DNA of 20,654 nucleotides. Origin: a virus. The position numbers and the translations under genes are program-made. This document shows positions 6,787 through 20,384 of this stretch, in pieces. Under the pieces are notes generated by a model. It had not been told where the DNA came from. It was given only the letters and a program-made list of their open reading frames with translations, and ran no database searches. Position 1 is the first letter of the stretch. Every line of letters begins with the position of its first letter. The DNA lies in IMG/VR virus record IMGVR_UViG_3300048597_000474, positions 1-20,654 of that record; one strand, written 5' to 3'.

Positions 6787-8274
6787 TTAGTAGGTGTCGT
6801 AGCCGTCGGTGGCGGCTTCGTCGCGGGCGTCGCCGTAGGGAAGATTGAGCTGGTGGAACGCGCCCGCGGTGGCGTCAACCTGGTCGTCGTGCTTGCCGGT
6901 GGGAAAGGCGGTCAGCTCGTCGAGGTAGTCCCGGTTCCACGGGCCGGCGAGCAGCTGGACGTTGCCGGCCTGCCACTGGGCGGCGAGGGGCTCGGCCCGC
7001 TCCACCTTGTCGCCCTTCACGGGGCTGCCGAAGGCGGCGAAGCCGGCGAGCACCTTGATCACCGCATCGGTCGCCTCCTTGGCCAGGCCGGGCGGCTGCT
7101 CGATGCCGATGCGGACGTGGCCGTAGGCGTGGCGGTCGAGCTCGGCGGTCTGCCGGATAACCCGGTTGCGCTCGTCGGCCGGCCACTGGCCGCGCACGAC
7201 GTCCACCACGTACCAGGTCGTCGTGGGCGGGTGGTACGCGAGCAGCACGCCGGCGGTGTAGTCGCCCTTACCGGGCCGGGCGCCGGCCTTGTCCCAGTAG
7301 CGGGTGAAGATGCAGCCGGCGGGGTAGGCCGCGACGATCGCCACGCCCCGGCGGAACATCCCGCCGTCGCGGGGCCGCGGGCGCTGCTGGAACAGCGCCC
7401 CGAAGAAGTAGTCGCCGATGCGCCGCGCCAGCTTCTGGAGCCGCTCGACCGGGTAGCGCTCCGGGCAGAGCGCCTCGCCGTCGGCGCGCCAGTCGGGGTG
7501 GACGGTGCAGGTCGCGGGGTAGCTGGGGCGGTCGTCGGGCTCGGCGAGCGCGGGCAGGTTGACGATGTACCAGCCCTCGGGCTCGTCCTGCTCAAGGCCC
7601 AGCACGTAGCCGGTAAGGTCGGCCTCGTGCCAGCGGGTTTGGAGGATGACGATCGCACCACCGGGCTCCTCACGGGTACTGAAGACACTGCCGAACCAGT
7701 CCTGCTGCTTGCTGCGGATGACCTCGGAGGCGGCCTGCTCGGCGTCCTTGATCGGGTCGTCGATGATGCCGAGGTGGAAGCCCTTGCCGGTCGCCGGTCC
7801 GCCCACGCCGCCGGCCCAGAGGCCCCCGCCGGCCCGGGTCTGCCAGTGCTTCACCGCGCTGGCGGCCTTGTGGAGCAGGCCCCCGGCCCGCTGGTAGTTC
7901 TCGCGGGCCGCCCGGCTGAGGGTGTAGGCCAGGTCGGCGCCGTAGCTCGTGATGGCGACCCAGCGGTCGGGGTGGCGGTACAGGTAGTAGGCGGAGAACA
8001 GGCGCGAGACGGTCTCGGACTTGGAGTGGCGGGGCGGGAGCGCGATGAGCACCCGGCGCAGCTCGCCGTCGGCGACGCGCTGCAGGACGGCGATCAGCTC
8101 CGCGCAGTGGCGGTAGACCTGGTAGCGGGGGCTGACACGGGCGATGAACGCCTGGAAGCTGAGCGGGGCCTCGGCCGCCGCGGGGTCGGGGAACTGCTCG
8201 TCAAGGGCGGAGCAGAGCGACGCCCACGGATCGGCGCTCGCGGAGCTTGGTGAGAATGCGGCGCCTGGTTGCAT
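6787..8274 (-). CDS. terL: Terminase large subunit
   Basis: 495 residues, the usual length. The N-terminal ATPase domain carries a Walker A-type loop, LPPRHSKSE (about residues 79-87), and Walker B plus catalytic carboxylate, GIIDDP (about 169-174). The coupling motif lies around ILQTRWHE (about 210-217). The C-terminal RNase H-like nuclease has three acidic positions: RYWDKAG (D about 328), the IEQ segment (E about 392) and HDDQVDATAGAF (D about 463-467). All key residues are present. The start at 8274 gives a 74-bp overlap with TerS in another frame; no better start is visible inside the overlap. It packages DNA into the procapsid through the portal. Confidence 0.93.
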   Translation of the reverse strand: MQPGAAFSPSSASADPWASLCSALDEQFPDPAAAEAPLSFQAFIARVSPRYQVYRHCAELIAVLQRVADGELRRVLIALPPRHSKSETVSRLFSAYYLYRHPDRWVAITSYGADLAYTLSRAARENYQRAGGLLHKAASAVKHWQTRAGGGLWAGGVGGPATGKGFHLGIIDDPIKDAEQAASEVIRSKQQDWFGSVFSTREEPGGAIVILQTRWHEADLTGYVLGLEQDEPEGWYIVNLPALAEPDDRPSYPATCTVHPDWRADGEALCPERYPVERLQKLARRIGDYFFGALFQQRPRPRDGGMFRRGVAIVAAYPAGCIFTRYWDKAGARPGKGDYTAGVLLAYHPPTTTWYVVDVVRGQWPADERNRVIRQTAELDRHAYGHVRIGIEQPPGLAKEATDAVIKVLAGFAAFGSPVKGDKVERAEPLAAQWQAGNVQLLAGPWNRDYLDELTAFPTGKHDDQVDATAGAFHQLNLPYGDARDEAATDGYDTY

Positions 8275-12768: not shown

Positions 12769-13275
12769 ATGAGCCGTCGTATCCAGGCCCCCAATCTGGC
12801 CCCCGAAGCGGTCGCCGAGCTGCAGCGACTGCGCCAAAATATTGCGGTCGTGATCGCCAACGCCGATCAGGCCGCCCAGCACTACCGGCGCATCGACGCG
12901 GGGCTGTGCAAAAGCCTCGCCGCGCTCGGCTACGGCGAGGCCGAGGACAGCATGGCCGACGTGCGGCTCGTCCAGGGCCTCGACGACGTGCGGGGCGAGC
13001 TGGAGGCGGCCGTCACCCGCCTCGCCGCCCTGGAAACCGCCGTCGCCACGATGGCCCGCCTGTGGGGTCACGGGCCGCTCGTCAGCGAGGGGTTCGTCAT
13101 CCAGGCGAACGAGGAGTTGCGCCGGCTGCGGCGCGACATCCACGCCGCCCCGCAGGCCACGGCGACGGCGACCGCGGCCGCGGTCGGCGCCGTGCTCGCC
13201 GGCCGCCCGCTCGTCGTCGTGCCCCGTGCCGACGGCGGGGGTGACGACGGGGCCGACCTGGAGCGGGCGGCCTAG
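12769..13275 (+). CDS. Unknown helical (coiled-coil-like) protein, plus strand
   Basis: 168 residues, MSRRIQAPNLAPE, with AGGAA upstream of the ATG. Most of the chain is helical with heptad-like spacing (VAELQRLRQNIAVVIANADQAAQ, LEAAVTRLAALETAVATMARLWG, NEELRRLRRDI). An alanine-threonine hydrophobic stretch (about 132-153) and an acidic end follow. It has no cysteines, signal peptide or known motif. It is transcribed divergently from the late operon across a region with an SOS-type box, and its stop overlaps the integrase stop on the other strand. Position suggests a regulator or lysogeny-related protein; this is only inference. Confidence 0.7.
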   Translation: MSRRIQAPNLAPEAVAELQRLRQNIAVVIANADQAAQHYRRIDAGLCKSLAALGYGEAEDSMADVRLVQGLDDVRGELEAAVTRLAALETAVATMARLWGHGPLVSEGFVIQANEELRRLRRDIHAAPQATATATAAAVGAVLAGRPLVVVPRADGGGDDGADLERAA

Positions 13276-14222
13276 TCGAGGCCGAGCAGGGCGGCCAGCG
13301 CGTCGGCGTGCGGGTTCTCGTTGGCGTGCAGCGCCGACATGTAGATCCCGGTGGTCGCGGCGTTCGCGTGGCCGAGCCGGGCCTGGATGTCGCTGAGCTT
13401 CGCCCCCGTCTCCTCCAGCGTGCGGGCGAACGTGTGCCGCAGCGCGTGCACTTTGGTCGTGCCGAGATGCTTGGCACAGATCGCCCGCACCCCGGGTATG
13501 CCGATCGGCAGACCGCGGGCGTCCACCCACACCGCCCCGTCGGCGGGCAGCGTGCGCAGCTGCGGGCCGTGGGCGGCGCGCAGGTAGGCGGCCAGGCTCG
13601 CGCTGAGGCCGGCCGGCAGCGTGTCGGCCATCCGCTTCCCGCCCTTGGTGCGCGCCCAGGTGAGGGTGATCTGCGAGCCCGCGACCGCGACGTGCCCCCA
13701 GCGGAGGCCGGCGAGCTCGGCCACGCGGCGCCCGGTCTGGAGCGCCACGGCCAGCAGGCAGTAGTCGCGCTGGCCCGCCACGGTCGTGCGGTCGATCGCG
13801 GCCAGGGCGTCGCGCACGTCGGCCAGCGGCAGTGCTTTCGCCGCGGCGTAGCGCTGCACCCGCCGGCGCTCCACGCGGTCGATCGGGTTCTCGCCGGCGA
13901 ACAGCCCCTGTCGGCGGGCGAAGGCGTAGAACGAGCTGAGGATCGCGAGCCGCTGGTTGAACGTCGCCGGCGCCGGTGCGCCGCGGGCGGCCCAGCCCTG
14001 CGCGGCCAGAGCCACGGCGGGAGCGGGGGCGTCGAGGGTGAGGGCGGCGCCGTCCAGGGCGGCGCGGAAGCTGGCGAGGGTGTCGGCGTAGGCGCGGCGC
14101 GTGCGCTCGCTGCCTGTGCGCCCGGCCTTGCTCGCGACCCAGGCCGCAACGGCCAGGTCGAGGGGCGGGGTGGACGGGGCGACGACCGCCGGCAAACCCG
14201 CCGCGCGGGCGAGGTCGTGCAT
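13272..14222 (-). CDS. Tyrosine recombinase (phage integrase)
   Basis: 316 residues. An N-terminal SAM-like core-binding domain (SERTRRAYADTLASFRAAL, FNQRLAILSSFYAFARRQG) is followed by the catalytic domain with all expected residues: arginine in TGRRVAEL (about R166), lysine near TKGGK (193-196), HALRH (H259, R262), LGH (H285) and the nucleophile tyrosine in TTGIYM (Y294). The protein appears intact. The length suggests a simple XerC/D-like integrase lacking a large N-terminal arm-binding domain. The gene converges on the 12769 gene with a 4-bp overlap containing both stop codons. It would integrate and, with a directionality factor, excise the phage. Confidence 0.93.
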   Translation of the reverse strand: MHDLARAAGLPAVVAPSTPPLDLAVAAWVASKAGRTGSERTRRAYADTLASFRAALDGAALTLDAPAPAVALAAQGWAARGAPAPATFNQRLAILSSFYAFARRQGLFAGENPIDRVERRRVQRYAAAKALPLADVRDALAAIDRTTVAGQRDYCLLAVALQTGRRVAELAGLRWGHVAVAGSQITLTWARTKGGKRMADTLPAGLSASLAAYLRAAHGPQLRTLPADGAVWVDARGLPIGIPGVRAICAKHLGTTKVHALRHTFARTLEETGAKLSDIQARLGHANAATTGIYMSALHANENPHADALAALLGLD

Positions 14223-14545: not shown

Positions 14546-14652
14546 GGAAGTGGGGGGTGTGGCGCCCGGCAAGGCGGCCTGGTGGTGGGACCAGACGGCG
14601 GCCGGGCGGGCCTATCCTACCACGCCCGCGCACCGGTTCGGAAATTCCGAAC

Positions 14653-14868
14653 CTACGCCACGAACGCCCGAGCCGGTTCCGCGCCGGCAGCTCGGGCGGC
14701 GTCGGCGTGGCGCCGGCCCGTGCGCTCGACGATCAGCTGGGCGGCCAGTGTGAGCGTGGCCTCGGGGCCGATGAGGGCGGTGAGCTGATCGGCGAGGCGG
14801 GCGGCGGCGGGGGCGTCGTCGTCGTCGAGGGCGCGGGCGAGGGCGGCGAGCGTGGAAAGCAGCGGCAT
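14653..14868 (-). CDS. Small alanine-rich helical protein, last gene of the early operon
   Basis: 71 residues, MPLLSTLAALARAL, with GGAG 8 nt upstream of the ATG. It is almost all helix (DDDDAPAAARLADQLTALIG, LTLAAQLIVERTGRRHADAARA) with no motif I recognise. It is separated from the upstream gene by two hairpins, and the early operon terminator follows. The plus-strand reading frames here are much poorer. Function unknown. Confidence 0.55.
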   Translation of the reverse strand: MPLLSTLAALARALDDDDAPAAARLADQLTALIGPEATLTLAAQLIVERTGRRHADAARAAGAEPARAFVA

Positions 14869-15014: not shown

Positions 15015-15230
15015 TCACCCGGCCGCGGCGAGCGGGCGGAGCGGGGTTGCCCGCACGGTGTGCCCCTCCCAGCCCTCGACCGGCGGGGCGCTCGTCAGCA
15101 GGCGCCGGCACGCCTCGGCGAGGGCGTCGGCCTCGTCGGCCGCGGGGATCACCTCGGCGAGCTGGCGGGCCTCGTAGTCGAGGAGGGACGGGAAGCGCAG
15201 GGCCAGGCCGGCGATCAGGTAGCTGTCCAT
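15015..15230 (-). CDS. Unknown small protein coupled to a Phd-like antitoxin
   Basis: 71 residues from the ATG at 15230 (a GTG just before it is less likely). Sequence: MDSYLIAGLALRFPSLLDYEARQLAEVI, a helical region with ADEADALAEACRRLLTSAPP, then a short strand-rich end. The ATG overlaps the antitoxin stop (ATGA), exactly where a toxin gene is usually found. However, it shows none of the features I know for Doc (HxFxxxN), RelE/YoeB or PIN toxins. It is either a novel partner or simply the next small phage gene. Confidence 0.6.
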   Translation of the reverse strand: MDSYLIAGLALRFPSLLDYEARQLAEVIPAADEADALAEACRRLLTSAPPVEGWEGHTVRATPLRPLAAAG

Positions 15231-15430
15231 CACGCCTCCCGTGCGGCCGCCGCCTCGGCCGCCGCCTTCAGGGCGAGGTAGGCCTCGACGCTCAGGATGA
15301 CACCCGTCGGGTAGCCCTTCTGGGTCACGACGATCGGCTGGCCGGTCGCCTTCGTCCGGGCGAGCAGGCGGGCCAGCTGGGCGGCGACGGCGGAGATCGG
15401 AAACACGCCGTTCTGCAGATCAACGCTCAT
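15230..15430 (-). CDS. Phd/YefM-family antitoxin-like protein
   Basis: 66 residues, MSVDLQNGVFPISAV. The pattern is that of Phd/YefM antitoxins: an early strand and helix (FPISAVAAQLARLLARTKATGQP) with the conserved IVVTQKGYPTGVILSVEAYLAL, where family members have IxITRxGKPVAVLxSxxxYxxL. These proteins dimerise, bind operator DNA through the N-terminus and neutralise a toxin with the C-terminus. The C-terminal part here is short and alanine-rich. Both junctions are ATGA overlaps. No recognised toxin is adjacent, so it may act as a phage anti-toxin decoy or as a plain DNA-binding regulator. Confidence 0.75.
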   Translation of the reverse strand: MSVDLQNGVFPISAVAAQLARLLARTKATGQPIVVTQKGYPTGVILSVEAYLALKAAAEAAAAREA

Positions 15431-15672
15431 GCGGTCCTCCGGTAGCCGTGGGCCTTCATCGCGTGGACGGCGAGGTGCTCGGCGTCCAGCTCGCGGCGGC
15501 AGCGCAGGCACGACGCCTGCGGGCGGGGCGGGTAGACGAGGGCGAGGTAGGCCGGCAGCGGCAGCCCGTGCCGGTCGGCCCGCCGGCGGGGCGTGGCCCG
15601 GGGGTCGCCGAGGGCCAGCAGCCGGCGCTCGGCGTCCACGTCCAGGGCGGGGGCCTCAGAAGGGGATTTCAT
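15427..15672 (-). CDS. Small C2H2-like zinc-finger phage protein
   Basis: 81 residues, MKSPSEAPALDVD. The C-terminal part has CLRCRRELDAEHLAVHAMKAHGY: cysteines at about 55 and 58, histidines at about 66, 70 and 75, a C2H2-like zinc-binding layout. The start lies inside the last codons of ssb in another frame (17-bp overlap), so it is coupled to ssb. A helical segment RRRADRHGLPLPAYLALVYPP precedes the finger. It could be a small nucleic-acid-binding partner of the replication or recombination genes. Specific role unknown. Confidence 0.65.
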   Translation of the reverse strand: MKSPSEAPALDVDAERRLLALGDPRATPRRRADRHGLPLPAYLALVYPPRPQASCLRCRRELDAEHLAVHAMKAHGYRRTA

Positions 15673-16210
15673 CGCCGTCGTCCTCCAGGGGCTGCGGGAC
15701 GTTGCGCCGGGGCGCGTTGGGGGCCGAGGTGCGGGGGCGGGCGCCTGCGGGGGCGCGGGCCGGGGCGGGGGCGGGCGGGGGCACATTCCGCGACGTCGCG
15801 GAATTTGGGGCGGGTGCGGGCGGGTCGTCGAACAGCTCGCCGTCGGGCGCGTCGGCCTCGGTGATCGCGGCGGGGCGCCGGCCGTCCAGCATGATCATGT
15901 CGACCGCCACGACCTCGACGGCCGTGCGCTCGTTGCCGTCCCGGTCGGTGTACTTCCGCGTCTGGAGGCGGCCCTCGACGTAGACCCGGGCGCCCTTGGC
16001 GAGGTACTGGTTGCAGACCTCGGCGAGCTTGTTCCAGGCCACGACCTTGAACCACTCCGTCTCTTCCTGGCTCCGCCCGTCGCGGTCCTTCCACTGGCGG
16101 CCGGCGGCCACGCTGAACGTCGTCACGGCGGCCCCGTCGGGGGTGTAGCGCATATCGGGGTCTGCACCCAGGCGGCCGATGATCATCACCTTGTTCAAGT
16201 CCCGGCTCAT
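15656..16210 (-). CDS. ssb: Single-stranded DNA-binding protein
   Basis: 184 residues. The OB-fold domain, about residues 1-112, starts MSRDLNKVMIIGRLGADPDMRYTPDG and includes EWFKVVAWNKLAEVCNQYLAKGARVYVEGRLQTRKY, the bacterial-type SSB core. A proline-alanine-rich disordered linker follows. The last residues DDGDEIPF are the acidic tip that docks partner proteins. AAAGGAA lies 5 nt before the ATG. It protects ssDNA during phage replication or recombination. The linker contains the dispersed 25-bp palindromic repeat (15782-15806). A perfect 18-bp palindrome sits 19 bp upstream of the start. Confidence 0.95.
   Translation of the reverse strand: MSRDLNKVMIIGRLGADPDMRYTPDGAAVTTFSVAAGRQWKDRDGRSQEETEWFKVVAWNKLAEVCNQYLAKGARVYVEGRLQTRKYTDRDGNERTAVEVVAVDMIMLDGRRPAAITEADAPDGELFDDPPAPAPNSATSRNVPPPAPAPARAPAGARPRTSAPNAPRRNVPQPLEDDGDEIPF
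15782..15806. repeat. Dispersed palindromic repeat, copy inside ssb
   Basis: Contains the perfect palindrome ATTCCGCGAC-GTCGCGGAAT with flanks CAC and TT. It matches the reverse complement of 20274-20298 at 24 of 25 bases, and encodes SSB linker residues NSATSRNV. Confidence 0.85.
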
Positions 16211-16228
16211 CGCGGTTCCTTTCTGCGG

Positions 16229-16246
16229 TGTGTACCACGGTACACA
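16229..16246. promoter_or_regulatory. Perfect palindrome upstream of ssb
   Basis: TGTGTACC-AC-GGTACACA, 8-bp arms with a 2-bp centre, 19 bp before the ssb ATG. It could be an operator for a repressor dimer. A related half-site, TGAGTACCACGG, lies on the minus strand at 17194-17205, before the 17161 gene. Confidence 0.6.
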
Positions 16247-16252
16247 GGGGCG

Positions 16253-16279
16253 GGGTGGACGGCGCCGTGCCGTCCACCC
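16253..16279 (-). terminator. Hairpin between the 16290 gene and ssb
   Basis: Perfect 11-bp arms at 16253-16263 and 16269-16279 (GGGTGGACGGC / GCCGTCCACCC) with a 5-nt loop, about 10 nt after the upstream stop. No U-run. Confidence 0.6.
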
Positions 16280-16289
16280 GGGGGCGGGC

Positions 16290-16643
16290 CTAGCGGCTCC
16301 AGCCGGGCGAGTCCTTGCCCGCGTAGCCCTTGCAGTAGCATGGGCTCTCGCCCTCGCCGGCGACGTTGTGCGACCACCACGAGTCGCCCTGCTTCTCGCG
16401 GAGCCGCATCGGGACGTTGTGCTTCGGGCAGATCGGTGTACCGTCGGGGAGGGCGCGCCACTCCCGCTGCGGCTCCACGACCTCGATCTGGGGCAGCTCG
16501 GACAGGCCGCGGACGACGCGCATCACGTCGCGCAGGGTCTCGCCCTCGATGGCCAGCGGGCCGGCGTGGCCGTTGATGCGGGCCTGCACGGTGAAGGTAA
16601 TGCGGACGGGCTTCTCTGGGAGGGCGGTGGGCTCGATCGCCAT
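16290..16643 (-). CDS. Putative zinc-binding phage recombination/replication accessory
   Basis: 117 residues, MAIEPTALPEKPVR, with AGAGGAG upstream. The N-terminal part (ITFTVQARINGHAGPLAIEGETLRDVMRVVRGL) predicts a small alpha-beta domain. The C-terminus (CPKHNVPMRLREKQGDSWWSHNVAGEGESPCYCKGY) has C72, H75, H92, C102 and C104 as a probable zinc site. Proteins of this type (CPKHxxPMxxREKxGDxWWSH) recur next to ssb or recombination genes in phages of high-GC bacteria, but I know no defined activity. Its place directly before ssb supports a DNA-metabolism role. Confidence 0.65.
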   Translation of the reverse strand: MAIEPTALPEKPVRITFTVQARINGHAGPLAIEGETLRDVMRVVRGLSELPQIEVVEPQREWRALPDGTPICPKHNVPMRLREKQGDSWWSHNVAGEGESPCYCKGYAGKDSPGWSR

Positions 16644-16702
16644 GGGGGCGCTCCTCTCGGGTTTGCGACAGAACGTGTCGGGCGTGTCGGGAAGGGGGGC
16701 GG

Positions 16703-17161
16703 CTACGGCCGGTAGGCGAGGCCGTCGAACACCAACACGGCGGGCTGCCAGTCGTCGCCGATGCGCCACACCGCCCGCAGCGTGCGCCCGCAGCGGGTCG
16801 CGGCCTCGGCCGCGGCGACGGCGGCGGCCTCGCTCACGTAGTGGTTGCCCGCCTCGTCCCCGTCGTCGAGCGTGCTCACGGTGTGCGTGTAGCGGGCGAC
16901 GACGGCTGTGGTGAAGCGGCCGGCGCCGGCCGGCGTCACGTCCAGGTGCAGCGCTGCGCGGGGGCCGCGGACAAAGAAGCGATAGCCGCGGCCGGGCAGC
17001 AGGCAGCCGTCGTCGGCCCCGTCCAGGTGGAGCGCGTGGGCCAGGGCCAGCAGCTCGATCTCGGCGGCGTCCCGGGCGGCGTCGTAGGCGTCCTCGAAGT
17101 GCAGCGCCTCGGCGTGCGCGATCTCGGCCACGGCGTCGGGGCTCAGGGTCTCGGTGCTCAT
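16703..17161 (-). CDS. Hypothetical early protein
   Basis: 152 residues from the ATG at 17161, with AGAGGAG upstream; a longer version from 17335 has no such support. The first 45 residues are helical and acidic (SPDAVAEIAHAEALHFEDAYDAARDAAEIELLALAHAL). The rest looks beta-rich (YRFFVRGPRAALHLDVTPAG, FTTAVVARYTHTVSTL, LRAVWRIGDDWQPAVLVFDGLAYRP). Two isolated cysteines do not form a clear metal site. Family unknown. Confidence 0.65.
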   Translation of the reverse strand: MSTETLSPDAVAEIAHAEALHFEDAYDAARDAAEIELLALAHALHLDGADDGCLLPGRGYRFFVRGPRAALHLDVTPAGAGRFTTAVVARYTHTVSTLDDGDEAGNHYVSEAAAVAAAEAATRCGRTLRAVWRIGDDWQPAVLVFDGLAYRP

Positions 17162-17202
17162 CGCAGGCTCCTCTCGTACTGATGATCGGGGGTCCGTGGT
17201 AC

Positions 17203-17391
17203 TCAGGCGGTCGGCGGGCGGTGGGTCACGCGGTGCAGGCTCTGGCGGGCCACGCTGCGGTCCCAGTCCTGGCGCACCCGCCGCAGCTCGGCGAGCAGGG
17301 CGCGGGCGGCCTGGCGGGCGATGCGGAGGCTGCACCCCCGCTCAGCGGCGATCTCGCGGGCCAGCGCCTCCAGCTCGGCGTCGGCGTCCAT
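17203..17391 (-). CDS. Hypothetical small helical, charged protein
   Basis: 62 residues from the ATG at 17391, which overlaps the upstream stop (ATGA). Sequence: MDADAELEALAREIAAERGCSLRIARQAARALLAELRRV, then a basic arginine-rich end (RQDWDRSVARQSLHRVTHRP). It has the shape of a small helical DNA- or protein-binding subunit. No family recognised. The overlap supports it as a translated gene. Confidence 0.6.
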   Translation of the reverse strand: MDADAELEALAREIAAERGCSLRIARQAARALLAELRRVRQDWDRSVARQSLHRVTHRPPTA

Positions 17392-17699
17392 CACGCGGCC
17401 TCCCGCAGCGGCACGGCGAGCAGCTCGGCAATCTCATCGTCCGTTCCACCGGCGGCGATGAGGCGGGCCAGCACGGCGCGGCCAGCGTCGGGGGCGGCGG
17501 TGGCGAGCAGTCCGTGGGCGTAGCCGCCGCGCACCGCGAACAGGACGATCGCGTTGTTCGCGGCGTGGGCGTCAGTCCCGTCGGGGGCGGCGAGGCGGGC
17601 CAGCTCGGCGGCGGCGGTGGCGTGGGCGTCGGCGCCCCCCAGGTTCGCCGCGGCGAGGGCGGCGGCGAGGCGGGCGATCGTGCGGTCGGAGAGGGCCAT
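17391..17699 (-). CDS. Hypothetical alanine-rich helical protein
   Basis: 102 residues, MALSDRTIARLAA, with AAGGA 8 nt upstream of the ATG. The context TACCACCGATG around the start is shared with the 18746 gene. The chain is almost entirely helices broken by glycine-aspartate turns (ANLGGADAHATAAAELARL, FAVRGGYAHGLLATAAPDAGRAVLARLIAAGGTDDEIAELLAV). It is coupled to the next gene by ATGA. Function unknown. Confidence 0.6.
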   Translation of the reverse strand: MALSDRTIARLAAALAAANLGGADAHATAAAELARLAAPDGTDAHAANNAIVLFAVRGGYAHGLLATAAPDAGRAVLARLIAAGGTDDEIAELLAVPLREAA

Positions 17700-17760
17700 C
17701 GGTGGTATCCTTCCGTGGCGCGGCGGGGGCGAGGGGTTGCACGCCGCCGCGTGTGAGCCT

Positions 17761-17787
17761 GGCGCCCCCGGCAAGCCCGGGGGCGCC
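17761..17787 (-). terminator. Hairpin after the 17795 gene
   Basis: Perfect 11-bp arms GGCGCCCCCGG / CCGGGGGCGCC with a 5-nt loop, 8 nt after the stop codon. No U-run. Confidence 0.6.
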
Positions 17788-17794
17788 GCCGTCA

Positions 17795-17989
17795 TCAGGG
17801 GCGCTCGTCCTGCGGGGCGCCGCAGCGCTCGCAGCTGCTGTACTCGTCGCCGTTCTGAGCCAGGGCGATGTCGCCGGTGTTGAGCAGCGGGCGGGCACAG
17901 CGGTCACACAGCTGCACCAGGTTGCCCTCGTCGTCCGCACTGTGCTGCTTGGGCTCGGTCCAGTCGTAGTAGGAGTGCACGGTCTGCAT
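17795..17989 (-). CDS. Small zinc-ribbon-like protein
   Basis: 64 residues, MQTVHSYYDWTEPK, with GAGGA upstream of the ATG. Two CxxC pairs (CDRC at about 28-31 and CERCG at about 53-57) separated by 21 residues give a clear zinc-ribbon layout, and the surrounding sequence is acidic. Ribbons of this type often bind RNA polymerase, nucleic acid or protein partners; which applies here cannot be told. It lies 3 bp after the stop of the upstream membrane gene. Confidence 0.7.
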   Translation of the reverse strand: MQTVHSYYDWTEPKQHSADDEGNLVQLCDRCARPLLNTGDIALAQNGDEYSSCERCGAPQDERP

Positions 17990-17992
17990 CGC

Positions 17993-18142
17993 TCAGTCCT
18001 CGTCAATCAGCGTCCAAAGGTCGGCCAGGATGCGGGCGGCCGTTTCGCGGGCCGCCTCGACGGTCGGTTGGTCGTGGCGCCGCCGGTAGGCGATGGTGAG
18101 CGCACTCACCAGGGCGGCGATCAGGGTCGTCAGCTGCTGCAT
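17993..18142 (-). CDS. Small single-pass membrane protein
   Basis: 49 residues from the ATG at 18142, MQQLTTLIAALVSALTIAY. The N-terminal hydrophobic segment is followed by RRRH, a stop-transfer-like basic patch, and an amphipathic helical tail (TVEAARETAARILADLWTLIDED). The longer start at 18214 would translate the hairpin leader and is rejected. There is no ribosome site, only a hairpin directly upstream, so expression may depend on re-initiation or mRNA structure. It could be an exclusion or membrane-anchoring protein. Confidence 0.5.
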   Translation of the reverse strand: MQQLTTLIAALVSALTIAYRRRHDQPTVEAARETAARILADLWTLIDED

Positions 18143-18157
18143 CGTTGGGGGGGGTGG

Positions 18158-18183
18158 GGGTGGGCGGTGCAGGCCGCCCACCC
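18158..18183 (-). terminator. Hairpin before the 18142 membrane gene
   Basis: Perfect 10-bp arms GGGTGGGCGG / CCGCCCACCC with a 6-nt loop, about 11 nt after the upstream stop and 16 nt before the next ATG. Sequence resembles the hairpin at 16253-16279. No U-run. Confidence 0.6.
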
Positions 18184-18194
18184 GGGCGAGAACG

Positions 18195-18746
18195 CTACGC
18201 AAACAGGGCGTCAATCTCGCGGTCGGCGTCGCTCAGCCGGACGGTGGCGCGGGCAAGGGGGGTGTGGCCCCAGTGGACCCACGTCCCCGCCTCGCCGTCG
18301 TTGCGGCCGTCGGGGAGGTCCCACCACCCGGCGACCAGCTCGGCGTAGGCCGCATCGTCCAGGGTGCAGCGGCCGGCGACGATCGCGGCCTCGGCCGCGG
18401 CGATCAGGGCCGCGGCGGCGTCCAGGGCGTCGGCGACCTGCTCGCGGGCCACGCCCACGGCCTCGGCCAGTGCCGCGTGCCAGCAGGGCCGGCCGTTCGC
18501 CCCGGCGGTGCAGGAGCAGGGCAGGGGGCCGACGCGGTAGACCGTGCCCGCCGTCTCCCGCGACGGAACGAGCAGCGAGCCGTCGGCGCTCACCCGAACG
18601 GCGGCGTACACGCCCTGTGCGACCTGCGCGTCGGCGCGGTTCAGGGCGTTGGCGTTGGCCGTGTCGCCGGCCAGCTGGGCGATGCGGGCGAGCTCGGCGA
18701 GGGCGTCGCGGACCAGCTCGACGGGGGGGAGGGTGTAGCACAGCAT
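18195..18746 (-). CDS. SWIM zinc-finger-like early protein
   Basis: 183 residues from the ATG at 18746, MLCYTLPPVELV, with AGGAG about 10 nt upstream. Residues about 77-90, CSCTAGANGRPCWH, fit the SWIM pattern CxC-xn-CxH, a zinc-binding motif thought to bind DNA or protein. The segment before it (GVYAAVRVSADGSLLVPSRETAGTVYRVG) is strand-rich. The region after it is helical (ALAEAVGVAREQVADALDAAAALIAAAEAAI) with a tryptophan-rich end. It is the second gene of the early operon. SWIM proteins in phages often accompany recombination genes; the role here is inferred only. Confidence 0.7.
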   Translation of the reverse strand: MLCYTLPPVELVRDALAELARIAQLAGDTANANALNRADAQVAQGVYAAVRVSADGSLLVPSRETAGTVYRVGPLPCSCTAGANGRPCWHAALAEAVGVAREQVADALDAAAALIAAAEAAIVAGRCTLDDAAYAELVAGWWDLPDGRNDGEAGTWVHWGHTPLARATVRLSDADREIDALFA

Positions 18747-18819
18747 CGGTGGTATACTCCTGGTGGTGAAGGGGGCGGGGGTCGGTCTGGACAACTCCCC
18801 CCGCCCGCGGTCCCGGTGG

Positions 18820-18843
18820 AGGCTCTGGCACTTGCCAGAGCCT
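18820..18843 (-). terminator. Hairpin after the first early gene
   Basis: Perfect 11-bp arms AGGCTCTGGCA / TGCCAGAGCCT with a 2-bp centre, 7 nt after the stop of the 18851-18997 gene. No U-run on the minus strand; partial attenuation or processing is likely. Confidence 0.6.
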
Positions 18844-18850
18844 TCGTCGT

Positions 18851-18997
18851 TTAGGCCCGCCGCAGCGCGTCGTACACGAGCGCGTCCAGGGCCTGCTCGG
18901 CCTCCTGGTAGGTGCGGAAGAAGCGCACCAGCTCGCCGTTGAGGTAGCCGGCGAAGTCGCGGGTCTCGGGGTCGTAGACGATCTGCTTGGTGTACAT
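18851..18997 (-). CDS. First early-operon gene, 48-residue protein
   Basis: Begins with the ATG at 18997, with GGAGG 6 nt upstream, and ends with TAA at 18851-18853. Sequence starts MYTKQIVYDPETRDFAGYLNG and continues ELVRFFRTYQEAEQALDALVY to a basic end. It predicts two or three strands (including DFAGYLNGELVRFF) and a helix. This is the immediate-early product of the strong leftward promoter at 19035-19062. The compact fold and position suggest a small regulator or host-takeover protein. Family not recognised. Confidence 0.7.
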   Translation of the reverse strand: MYTKQIVYDPETRDFAGYLNGELVRFFRTYQEAEQALDALVYDALRRA

Positions 18998-19034
18998 TGT
19001 GGCCTCCGTGTGATTACTTACCTCCGACACTCTT

Positions 19035-19062
19035 ATTATATCTTGCTTTCGCTATTTGTCAA
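19035..19062 (-). promoter_or_regulatory. Strong leftward early promoter
   Basis: On the minus strand TTGACA (19057-19062), a 16-bp spacer and TATAAT (19035-19040), both exact sigma70 consensus hexamers, about 38 bp before the first early ATG. The surrounding sequence is AT-rich. The spacer holds the repeat GCTTTCGCTATT (19045-19056, read on the plus strand). Confidence 0.9.
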
Positions 19063-19080
19063 TGAACATGCTGTCATCAC

Positions 19081-19110
19081 TGAGATCGGTCACGATCTCA
19101 ACTGATCTCA
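19081..19110. promoter_or_regulatory. Operator region between the divergent early promoters
   Basis: TGAGATCG-GTCA-CGATCTCA is a palindrome with perfect 8-bp arms (19081-19100). A further half-site, GATCTCA (19104-19110), follows 10 bp after the one at 19094-19100, one helical turn away. Two copies of GCTTTCGCTATT (19045-19056 and 19111-19122) flank the site, each overlapping a promoter. Confidence 0.75.
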
Positions 19111-19120
19111 GCTTTCGCTA

Positions 19121-19149
19121 TTGACGCTTCTTTTCCCGTGTGGTATGAT
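19121..19149 (+). promoter_or_regulatory. Rightward promoter of the HTH regulator
   Basis: TTGACG (19121-19126), a 17-bp spacer and TATGAT (19144-19149), with TG one base before the -10 box (extended -10). The ATG of the HTH gene is 33 nt past the -10. Confidence 0.85.
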
Positions 19150-19181
19150 CGCGGCGAGCTATCGAGAGGAGGCACGAGATC

Positions 19182-19457
19182 ATGACCACACGGGTGTTTG
19201 CATCACCGGAGGAGGCGGCGCACATCTTCGACACGACGCCGCAAACCATCCGTGCGTGGATCGCAGCGGGCAAGCTGCGAACGGCGCCCCGGCTCGGCCG
19301 GAAGCACCTCATCTACGTCGAGAGCATCGCAGAGCAGGCGGGGATCAGCGTGGAGCGGGTCAACCAGATCATCGACACGCTGGAGCGTCGGACGCGAGGT
19401 GACACAATAAATGAGCCGGGGGCCGTGATCAGTGTTGTGGGTGTTGCGACCCACTGA
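19182..19457 (+). CDS. MerR/excisionase-type HTH DNA-binding protein
   Basis: 91 residues, MTTRVFASPEEAA, with GAGAGGAGG about 9 nt upstream. Residues about 6-50 (FASPEEAAHIFDTTPQTIRAWIAAGKLRTAPRLGRKHLIYVESI) form the winged-helix HTH_17 type found in excisionases and small phage regulators. A second helical part (ISVERVNQIIDTLERR) may mediate dimerisation. Its promoter faces the early operon promoter across a palindrome, so it is the best candidate for the phage switch regulator or the excisionase. Oddly, the last 15 or so codons form the left arm and loop of a 22-bp hairpin (19413-19473), and the stop lies inside it. Confidence 0.8.
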   Translation: MTTRVFASPEEAAHIFDTTPQTIRAWIAAGKLRTAPRLGRKHLIYVESIAEQAGISVERVNQIIDTLERRTRGDTINEPGAVISVVGVATH

Positions 19458-19473
19458 TCACGGCCCCCGGCTC
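19413..19473. terminator. Large bidirectional terminator-like hairpin
   Basis: Perfect 22-bp arms at 19413-19434 and 19452-19473 (ends GAGCCGGGGGCC / GGCCCCCGGCTC) with an inner GTGGGT/ACCCAC. It sits between convergent genes. On the minus strand it is followed by ATTTATTGTG, so it best terminates leftward transcription. The HTH gene's stop codon lies inside it. Confidence 0.7.
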
Positions 19474-19607
19474 TGTAGTGCGCTGCTGTCCTCGAAAACC
19501 TCAGCGCCCTACGCAGGAACTCGCCGGCTCCCTCGATGGCTCTCAGGCAACCGGCGATCTATGTTGCAGGCCCCTGGCAGGGCCGAACAACCGAAAGGAG
19601 CGGACCC

Positions 19608-20009
19608 CTACACAAACTCCCGCTTGCAGTGCTTGCAGCGCACGGCGTCCAGACGCACGTCCCCGTTGCAGGCGGAGCACTTGGCGGCGGCCCGGTACGG
19701 GATCTTCCGCGCCTGGGTGTCGCCGAGCACGACGGCCGGTGCCAGCTCGCGGGTACAGTGACGGCAGACCGTCGCCTCTGGCCGGATCAGCTCGGCACAG
19801 TGCGGACACTTCCGCATCGCCCCGGATGTCACGGCCTGGTGCTCCAACGCCGCCGTATCGGAGGGGGTGAGCAGGGCCAGCAGGACGCCGATCGGCCCGA
19901 GCGCCACCCCGACGATGAACGCCTCGGCGCCTGAGCGGCCCTTGCTGGTGTAGACACCGGCGGCGATGACGCCGCACAGGAGCCAGAGCCCGACAATCAA
20001 CAATCCCAT
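19608..20009 (-). CDS. Membrane protein with two zinc ribbons
   Basis: 133 residues from the ATG at 20009; the ribosome site is weak. Two hydrophobic segments (about 3-20, LLIVGLWLLCGVIAAGVY, and about 30-47, AFIVGVALGPIGVLLALL) are joined by TSKGRSGAE. Then come two four-cysteine ribbons: CPHC...CRHC (68, 71, 82, 85) and CSAC...CKHC (111, 114, 125, 128). Small membrane proteins of this GRSG-GPIG type with cytosolic ribbons are common in bacteria and sometimes sit at prophage edges. It may be a lysogenic-conversion gene or a host gene; the gene order does not decide. It converges on the HTH gene. Confidence 0.75.
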   Translation of the reverse strand: MGLLIVGLWLLCGVIAAGVYTSKGRSGAEAFIVGVALGPIGVLLALLTPSDTAALEHQAVTSGAMRKCPHCAELIRPEATVCRHCTRELAPAVVLGDTQARKIPYRAAAKCSACNGDVRLDAVRCKHCKREFV

Positions 20010-20273
20010 ACCATTCCCGTTTGCTCTGTAGGAGTACGTCGCCCGTTCAACAATTCGCCCCCCTCGGGTTCCCCCCGCTCGCCGCAGCCCCCGACCTGCA
20101 ACGACGGCTTCGACCCGCTCCCGGCCCCCGTGGGCCGGCAGAGCCGCGCTTTGTGTTGCCCGCTGCACGTTTCCAACCTGGACGATCCCTCCCCTGAGCG
20201 GCGCCCCTGGTGGCACCGTCCGCCGCTCGCCCCGGCCCCGTCGCCGGCAGCCCGTGGGGGAGTCTGAACCAGT

Positions 20274-20298
20274 AAATTCCGCGACATCGCGGAATGTG
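20274..20298. repeat. Dispersed palindromic repeat, copy beside tRNA-Leu
   Basis: Near-perfect palindrome ATTCCGCGACATCGCGGAAT with flanks AA and GTG. It is the reverse complement of the copy inside ssb (15782-15806) with one mismatch, and ends 3 bp before the encoded CCA of the tRNA gene. Confidence 0.85.
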
Positions 20299-20300
20299 GC

Positions 20301-20384
20301 TGGTGGGGATGGCGGGAGTTGAACCCGCACGCCTTGCGGCACATGATCCTAAGTCATGCGCGTCTGCCATTTCGCCACATCCCC
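20301..20384 (-). tRNA. tRNA-Leu, anticodon UAG
   Basis: On the minus strand a 7-bp acceptor stem (GGGGATG / CATCCCC) and an anticodon arm CATGA-CTTAGGA-TCATG, giving anticodon UAG (leucine CUA). A type II variable arm (TGCCGCAAGGCG) and a T arm GCGGG-TTCAACT-CCCGC follow, with CCA encoded. Intact. Its 3' end points to the phage, the normal integration geometry. Confidence 0.95.

What the first reader, a model, noticed from the sequence alone, without database searches (positions are those of the whole stretch)
15782..20298. 25-bp palindromic repeat: one copy in the ssb linker, one inverted copy against the tRNA-Leu 3' end
15782-15806 and the reverse complement of 20274-20298 differ at one base, in the palindrome centre. 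One copy is translated as part of the disordered SSB linker (NSATSRNV); the other lies 3 bp from the tRNA CCA. This looks like a mobile or dispersed palindrome (REP/MITE-like) that inserts where proteins tolerate it. Its presence in both phage and flank suggests spread within the host genome.
Basis: seen in the sequence. Interest (0 to 1): 0.6.

Follow-up and report, generated by a model that had tools for sequence, protein, structure and literature searches.

The report
Twin 25-bp palindrome in a phage
A 25-base mirror-like DNA word occurs twice in a bacterial-virus record, once translated inside a flexible stretch of a DNA-binding protein and once beside a tRNA gene; it is real and looks like a small dispersed repeat, but the host genome needed to prove that it spreads could not be reached.

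Summary
15782-15806 and the reverse complement of 20274-20298 agree at 24 of 25 bases, around a 20-bp palindrome (ATTCCGCG-AYRT-CGCGGAAT). No simulated sequence gave such a pair. One copy is read in frame as NSATSRNV in the SSB linker; the other starts 2 nt from a tRNA-Leu 3' end.

In the nearest related SSB the alignment leaves an 8-residue gap there. None of 80 related SSB linkers holds a palindrome with 9-bp arms. An in-frame insertion is the best reading.

That it is mobile and spread through the host is not shown. The window is a bare 20.6-kb virus record without host genome. The exact 20-mer occurs in 6 isolated places in 84,980 species' genomes, never twice in one of those six.

Closest known kind: REP elements, including intragenic ones. 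The geometry fits CGTC REPs and Neisseria dRS3, but the GTAG/CGTC tags, the dRS3 core and a RAYT in the record were tested and not met.

A stronger side finding: a DUF3102-like gene of 17 transposable-phage-like records carries exactly one CAAAT-N16-ATTTG site each, with a covarying palindromic interior, inside coding sequence. Window copy 1 matches one version at 25 of 26 bases.

The parts
15782..15806 (+). copy 1 of the 25-bp repeat; perfect 20-bp palindrome at 15785-15804; read in frame on the minus strand as NSATSRNV
20274..20298 (-). copy 2 of the 25-bp repeat, inverted, one central base different; palindrome 20276-20295
15656..16210 (-). single-strand DNA-binding protein gene; OB domain plus a Pro/Ala-rich linker that carries copy 1
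   Evidence: PF00436 7.4e-40; phrog_44 1.1e-50
20301..20384 (-). tRNA-Leu with encoded CCA; promoter-like hexamers at 20426-20397, so transcription runs into copy 2
   Evidence: ARAGORN; Rfam; promoter scan; anticodon UAG read by me
20262..20305 (-). predicted hairpin of copy 2, lengthened by CCAG of the tRNA end pairing with CUGG
   Evidence: RNA fold -18.2 kcal/mol, z -4.57

Best explanation
The 25-bp unit is a small dispersed palindromic element, REP-like in size and shape (8-bp stem ATTCCGCG, 4-nt loop, about 20-25 bp). One copy landed in frame in the low-constraint Pro/Ala linker of the phage ssb gene and is translated. The other sits just downstream of the tRNA-Leu gene, a typical REP position (3' end of a transcription unit), where it would be transcribed as a hairpin. 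Shown: two near-identical copies, in-frame coding, absence from the linkers of related SSBs. Inferred: that the unit moved or was copied, and that the host genome carries more. Mobilising enzyme unknown.
For: 24 of 25 identity in inverted orientation, with 5 flank bases outside the 20-bp palindrome shared, 0 in simulations. Gap of 8 residues opposite the segment in the closest SSB relative, with a similar linker on both sides. 0 of 80 related SSB linkers with a palindrome of 9-bp arms. The 24 nt are 58% G+C against 85% for the other 156 nt of the linker; both Asn codons are AAT (9 of 94 in the set). Stem and loop geometry as in CGTC-1 REPs (8-bp stem beginning AT, 4-nt loop), and intragenic REPs are known in DNA synthesis and repair genes (PMC3733652). 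Copy 2 folds well downstream of a promoter-tRNA unit.
Against: Only two copies are known and no host genome was reachable. The exact palindrome is not repeated in any of the six genomes that hold it, and among 396 Actinomycetota only the one genome already selected for it matched. REP tags GTAG/CGTC absent, CCA tail absent. No Y1 or IS110 gene in the record. The linker is low-complexity, so the gap placement in a two-sequence alignment is weak proof of insertion. The segment's G+C is not extreme for the whole ssb gene (73 of 531 24-nt windows are as low or lower). No target-site duplication or empty site was found that would prove insertion.
Confidence: 0.42

Rival explanations
1. Both copies are dyad-symmetric binding sites of one dimeric DNA-binding protein of the phage or host (operator, partition-type or replication site), one of them tolerated inside the ssb linker. 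The near-perfect symmetry up to the centre is what a homodimer needs.
For: Copy 1 is symmetric through the centre, which a hairpin loop does not need. Three phage replication-initiator-like genes hold arrays of similar imperfect TTCCGCG-CGCGGAA palindromes in different reading frames, and Mu-like phages keep a covarying palindrome inside a coding gene, so phage coding sequence does host such sites.
Against: Only one site at each place, no array, 4.5 kb apart. No initiator, ParB or DUF3102 relative was found among the 17 distinct window reading frames scanned. The phage with the 82% identical terminase (G001) and the one with the related SSB (G002) have no like palindrome.
Confidence: 0.3
2. 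The copies are crossover sites: the inverted pair bounds an invertible 4.4-kb segment, or copy 2 marks the attachment site at the tRNA.
For: A tyrosine recombinase lies at 13272-14222. tRNA 3' ends are classic attachment sites (recalled). dRS3 palindromes of Neisseria are integration targets of a filamentous phage (PMC3898611, passages).
Against: Attachment sites that allow excision are direct repeats (recalled); these are inverted. The tRNA 3' end is not repeated elsewhere in the window. The integrase is 6 kb away. No IS110-type recombinase in the record.
Confidence: 0.08
3. Copy 2 is simply the hairpin that ends tRNA-Leu transcripts, and copy 1 is an unrelated or copied look-alike.
For: Promoter-like hexamers upstream of the tRNA; stable hairpin 2 nt past the CCA.
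Against: The terminator scan did not list it; the T tract is short (TTTACT). It does not explain the copy in ssb with shared flanks.
Confidence: 0.1
4. Chance.
For: None quantitative; the window is G+C-rich and repetitive.
Against: 0 of 100 shuffles and 0 of 40 simulations.
Confidence: 0.01

Closest known systems
CGTC-tagged REP elements (PMC3733652, sections 6 and 15 and passages read)
   Same: 8-bp stem that begins with AT and a 4-nt loop (family 1); REPs lie near 3' ends of genes and also inside genes for DNA synthesis and repair.
   Different: No CGTC (or TGTC/CCTC) tag and no CCA tail on either strand of either copy; genome-wide copy number unknown.
Neisseria dRS3, ATTCCC(N8)GGGAAT (PMC3898611, passages read)
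   Same: 20 bp, ATTCC...GGAAT ends, inverted repeat.
   Different: Sixth base is G, not C; longer stem; no cluster.
GTAG REPs with RAYT transposases
   Same: Small palindromes, some intragenic; reported in Chloroflexi too (Thermomicrobium roseum, PMC3733652).
   Different: No GTAG tag; no Y1 transposase in the record.
Rickettsia palindromic elements (RPE)
   Same: Palindromic unit translated in frame inside a protein.
   Different: PMC3733652 equates R. conorii RPE-4 and RPE-6 with CGTC REPs, whose tag is absent here; other RPE classes and their sequences were not compared.
Palindrome CAAAT-N16-ATTTG in the DUF3102-like gene of Mu-like phages
   Same: 26-bp palindrome in coding sequence of a phage; one version differs from window copy 1 at 1 of 26 bases.
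   Different: One site per phage, at a fixed gene position with covarying interior; different gene, different phages.

Membership tests
GTAG REP | GTAG tetranucleotide at one end of the stem | tested here: not met
   8 nt on each side of both copies, both strands
CGTC REP | CGTC (or TGTC/CCTC) at one end, CCA-like tail at the other | tested here: not met
   definition
CGTC REP | 8- or 9-bp stem beginning with AT, loop of 4-5 | tested here: met
   8-bp stem ATTCCGCG, loop AYRT
REP in general | many copies in the host genome | not testable with these tools
   no host genome behind the record; single-copy in six unrelated genomes
GTAG REP | RAYT (Y1) transposase associated | tested here: not met
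   PF01797 absent from the 20.6-kb record only; host untested
dRS3 | ATTCCC(N8)GGGAAT | tested here: not met
   both copies read ATTCCG...CGGAAT; definition
Mu-like DUF3102 palindrome | CAAAT-N16-ATTTG in a phrog_1748 gene | tested here: not met
   window reads CACAT-N16-ATTTG in ssb; no phrog_1748 hit among the window proteins scanned
phage attachment site | direct repeat of the tRNA 3' end | tested here: not met
   one place only within 3 mismatches; the far end of the prophage is not in the window

The most novel reading that the evidence does not exclude
The window pair and the Mu-like DUF3102 palindromes belong to one class: dyad-symmetric DNA sites with constant outer bases (CAnAT...ATTTG) and a freely covarying interior, embedded in coding sequences of unrelated phages and read by a dimeric protein whose specificity co-evolves with the site.
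Probability: 0.1. Interest if true: 0.75.

Novelty: new variant of a known kind. Interest (0 to 1): 0.36.

Why it matters
If the unit is a dispersed element, it is an untagged REP-like palindrome carried and translated by a phage in its replication protein, which would show phages acting as carriers of host REPs. If it is a binding site, it shows that phage protein linkers serve as a place to keep DNA signals. Either way the comparison led to a clear, testable case of covarying palindromes inside a phage coding gene.

Tried and rejected
Host-genome count: not possible. G000 is a virus record without kin. A plasmid locus is not accepted as a centre. A host phylum could only be guessed: the best plasmid match of the integrase is Candidatus Chlorohelix, Chloroflexota, 31.6% identity, which is a weak hint. 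The tRNA gene gave no taxonomic signal, and its core has no exact match in viral contigs.

Dispersed repeat in known species: the exact 20-mer lies in 6 stretches of genome contigs. By eye, translations around L005, L006, L007 and L008 look like ordinary conserved coding sequence (not scanned against families). Rejected as copies of one element.

Variants with changed inner stem but kept flanks: none in viral contigs. Variants with changed loop: 7 stretches, 3 in DUF3102-like genes, 3 in replication-initiator-like arrays, 1 (L018) unassigned.

Operator of the local HTH gene: the intergenic region 19031-19181 has its own repeats, not this palindrome (by eye). Replication iteron: no array at either copy.

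Literature: searches found no paper holding the palindrome sequence (six spellings), and I saw none describing the DUF3102 site in their listings. Only PMC3733652 (abstract passages, sections 6 and 15), PMC5977238 (passages) and PMC3898611 (passages) were opened; RAYT and RPE facts beyond these are recalled.
Full report
Observation. Within each is a 20-bp palindrome, perfect in copy 1 and with a 2-nt unpaired centre in copy 2. Besides the palindrome, five flank bases (CAC and TT) are the same, so the unit is oriented; the copies are inverted to one another. Chance is excluded at the rates tested: 0 of 100 shuffles, 0 of 40 simulations. Only one other 25-mer family in the window reaches 24 of 25, a direct pair at 672/2040. 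There is no third, weaker copy within 8 mismatches.

What carries it. Copy 1 lies in the ssb gene, 15656-16210 minus (PF00436 7.4e-40; phrog_44), in the Pro/Ala-rich linker between OB fold and acidic tail, and is translated as NSATSRNV. Copy 2 begins 2 nt beyond the encoded CCA of a tRNA-Leu; promoter-like hexamers precede the tRNA, so copy 2 is probably transcribed, and it folds stably (-18.2 kcal/mol, z -4.57). It has no real T tract and was not listed as a terminator. Whether the tRNA flank is host or phage cannot be told: the zinc-ribbon gene between (19608-20009) resembles phage families (phrog_8436 6.2e-22), and no second tRNA 3' end occurs in the window.

Is copy 1 an insertion? The nearest SSB found, L015 (65% by tblastn), aligns through the linker except for an 8-residue gap opposite ATSRNVPP (4 equally good alignments, the 3 printed agree). 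A scan with both SSBs found 107 relatives and kept 80. From residue 101 on, 0 of 80 have a palindrome with arms of 9 or more (loop up to 5), 2 of 80 have 8-bp arms (L049, which is the L015 record again, and L069). The segment uses AAT for both Asn, against 9 AAT in 94 Asn codons over 4,470 codons of a gene set that I chose by eye. Its G+C is 58% against 85% for the rest of the linker, yet 73 of 531 24-nt windows of the whole gene are as low, so composition alone proves little. I take an in-frame insertion as likely, not proven.

Is it dispersed? The window is a complete virus record of 20,654 bases with no host genome attached and no kin. The exact 20-mer was found in 6 stretches of the 84,980-species genome collection. 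In those six genomes, with up to 2 mismatches, five have one place and one has a second, 2-mismatch place. Of 396 Actinomycetota with up to 1 mismatch, only the one that had been selected matched. The tool warns that records near the window may be left out. So no held species shows the palindrome as a repeat family; the host itself is untested. No Y1 transposase or IS110 recombinase lies in the record.

Comparison with known kinds. REPs are 20-40 bp palindromes; many lie at 3' ends of genes, and some lie inside genes, often of DNA synthesis and repair (PMC3733652, abstract, sections 6 and 15). The window unit has the geometry of CGTC-1 (8-bp stem starting AT, 4-nt loop), but neither the CGTC nor the GTAG tag nor the CCA tail. 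dRS3 is ATTCCC(N8)GGGAAT (PMC3898611); the window has ATTCCG. So it works like a REP in what can be seen, but it is not a member of a defined family.

Following the palindrome in viruses. The exact 20-mer occurs in 3 other viral contigs, all in a DUF3102-like gene (phrog_1748 for the two proteins scanned). A search for that gene gave 17 records. All 17 hold exactly one CAAAT-N16-ATTTG site, at the same place in the gene; the two relatives of the window phage hold none. Three of the 17 had been selected for the palindrome; 14 had not. Over 12 distinct sites, 96.2% of cells pair (shuffled mean 75.0), 25 cells have changes on both sides (6.8), covariation score 0.500 (0.097, 0 of 500), and slid registers give 40.2% or less. 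Row 1 of the twelve is the selected type. In my reading the central four bases are themselves symmetric in 10 of 12, which favours a dyad site for a dimer over an RNA hairpin. Of 18 cultured-phage records with the gene I fetched 6: two have 26- and 28-bp perfect palindromes there (L028, L031), one 18 bp (L030), three have no arm of 8 or more. In L026 the next gene is annotated transposase, which with the gene's spread in transposable Pseudomonas phages (recalled) is why I call them Mu-like. Window copy 1 plus one base, CACATTCCGCGACGTCGCGGAATTTG, differs from the version in L032, L036 and L039 at one base. Since these were found by the inner 20 bases, only the six outer bases count as independent (5 of 6 agree), and the test is after the fact.

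A relaxed search found 7 stretches; three (L017, L019, L020) lie in genes that match replication-initiator families and stand in short arrays of imperfect TTCCGCG palindromes in different frames, like origin iterons inside an initiator gene (a lambda-O-like arrangement, recalled).

Verdict. Real repeat, most likely a small palindromic insertion of REP-like form (0.42), with a dimeric binding site as the main rival (0.30).

Noticed in passing
L032-L048 (e.g. L033:1856-1881, L038:1859-1884, L040:1837-1862): DUF3102-like gene of Mu-like phages: one CAAAT-N16-ATTTG per record in 17 of 17, interior a (near-)perfect palindrome with compensatory changes, in coding sequence. Function unknown; dyad site of a dimer is my guess.
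   Followed up: partly
L017:13990-14110, L019:8160-8230, L020:6948-7045 (approximate): Arrays of imperfect TTCCGCG-CGCGGAA palindromes, in several reading frames, in the linker of three replication-initiator-like genes in loci of 41% to 68% G+C.
   Followed up: partly
L028:638-663 and L031:637-664: Cultured Pseudomonas phage Fc22 and Microcystis phage Mae-JY22 have 26- and 28-bp perfect palindromes (CAAAA...TTTTG) in the same gene.
   Followed up: partly
window 19413-19473: Exact 22-bp inverted repeat (19413-19434 with 19452-19473, 17-nt loop) over the stop of the HTH gene 19182-19457; looks like a strong transcription stop or phage boundary signal. Seen by eye.
   Followed up: no
window 19031-19181: A+T-rich divergent region with a perfect 12-of-12 sigma-70-type promoter match on the minus strand and one of 10 of 12 on the plus strand, and repeats CTGAGATC-like and GCTTTCGCTATT (by eye): perhaps the lysogeny switch.
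   Followed up: no
window 6787-8274: Terminase 82% identical to that of G001 (36,461 bases), whose early region differs and holds a second tyrosine-recombinase-like gene (in L012:17-733, by eye).
   Followed up: no
window 15230-15511: Phd/YefM-type antitoxin (PF02604 2.6e-9) without an identified toxin partner.
   Followed up: no
window 14635-14653: A further 19-bp palindrome GGTTCGGAAATTCCGAACC, not a copy of the repeat.
   Followed up: no
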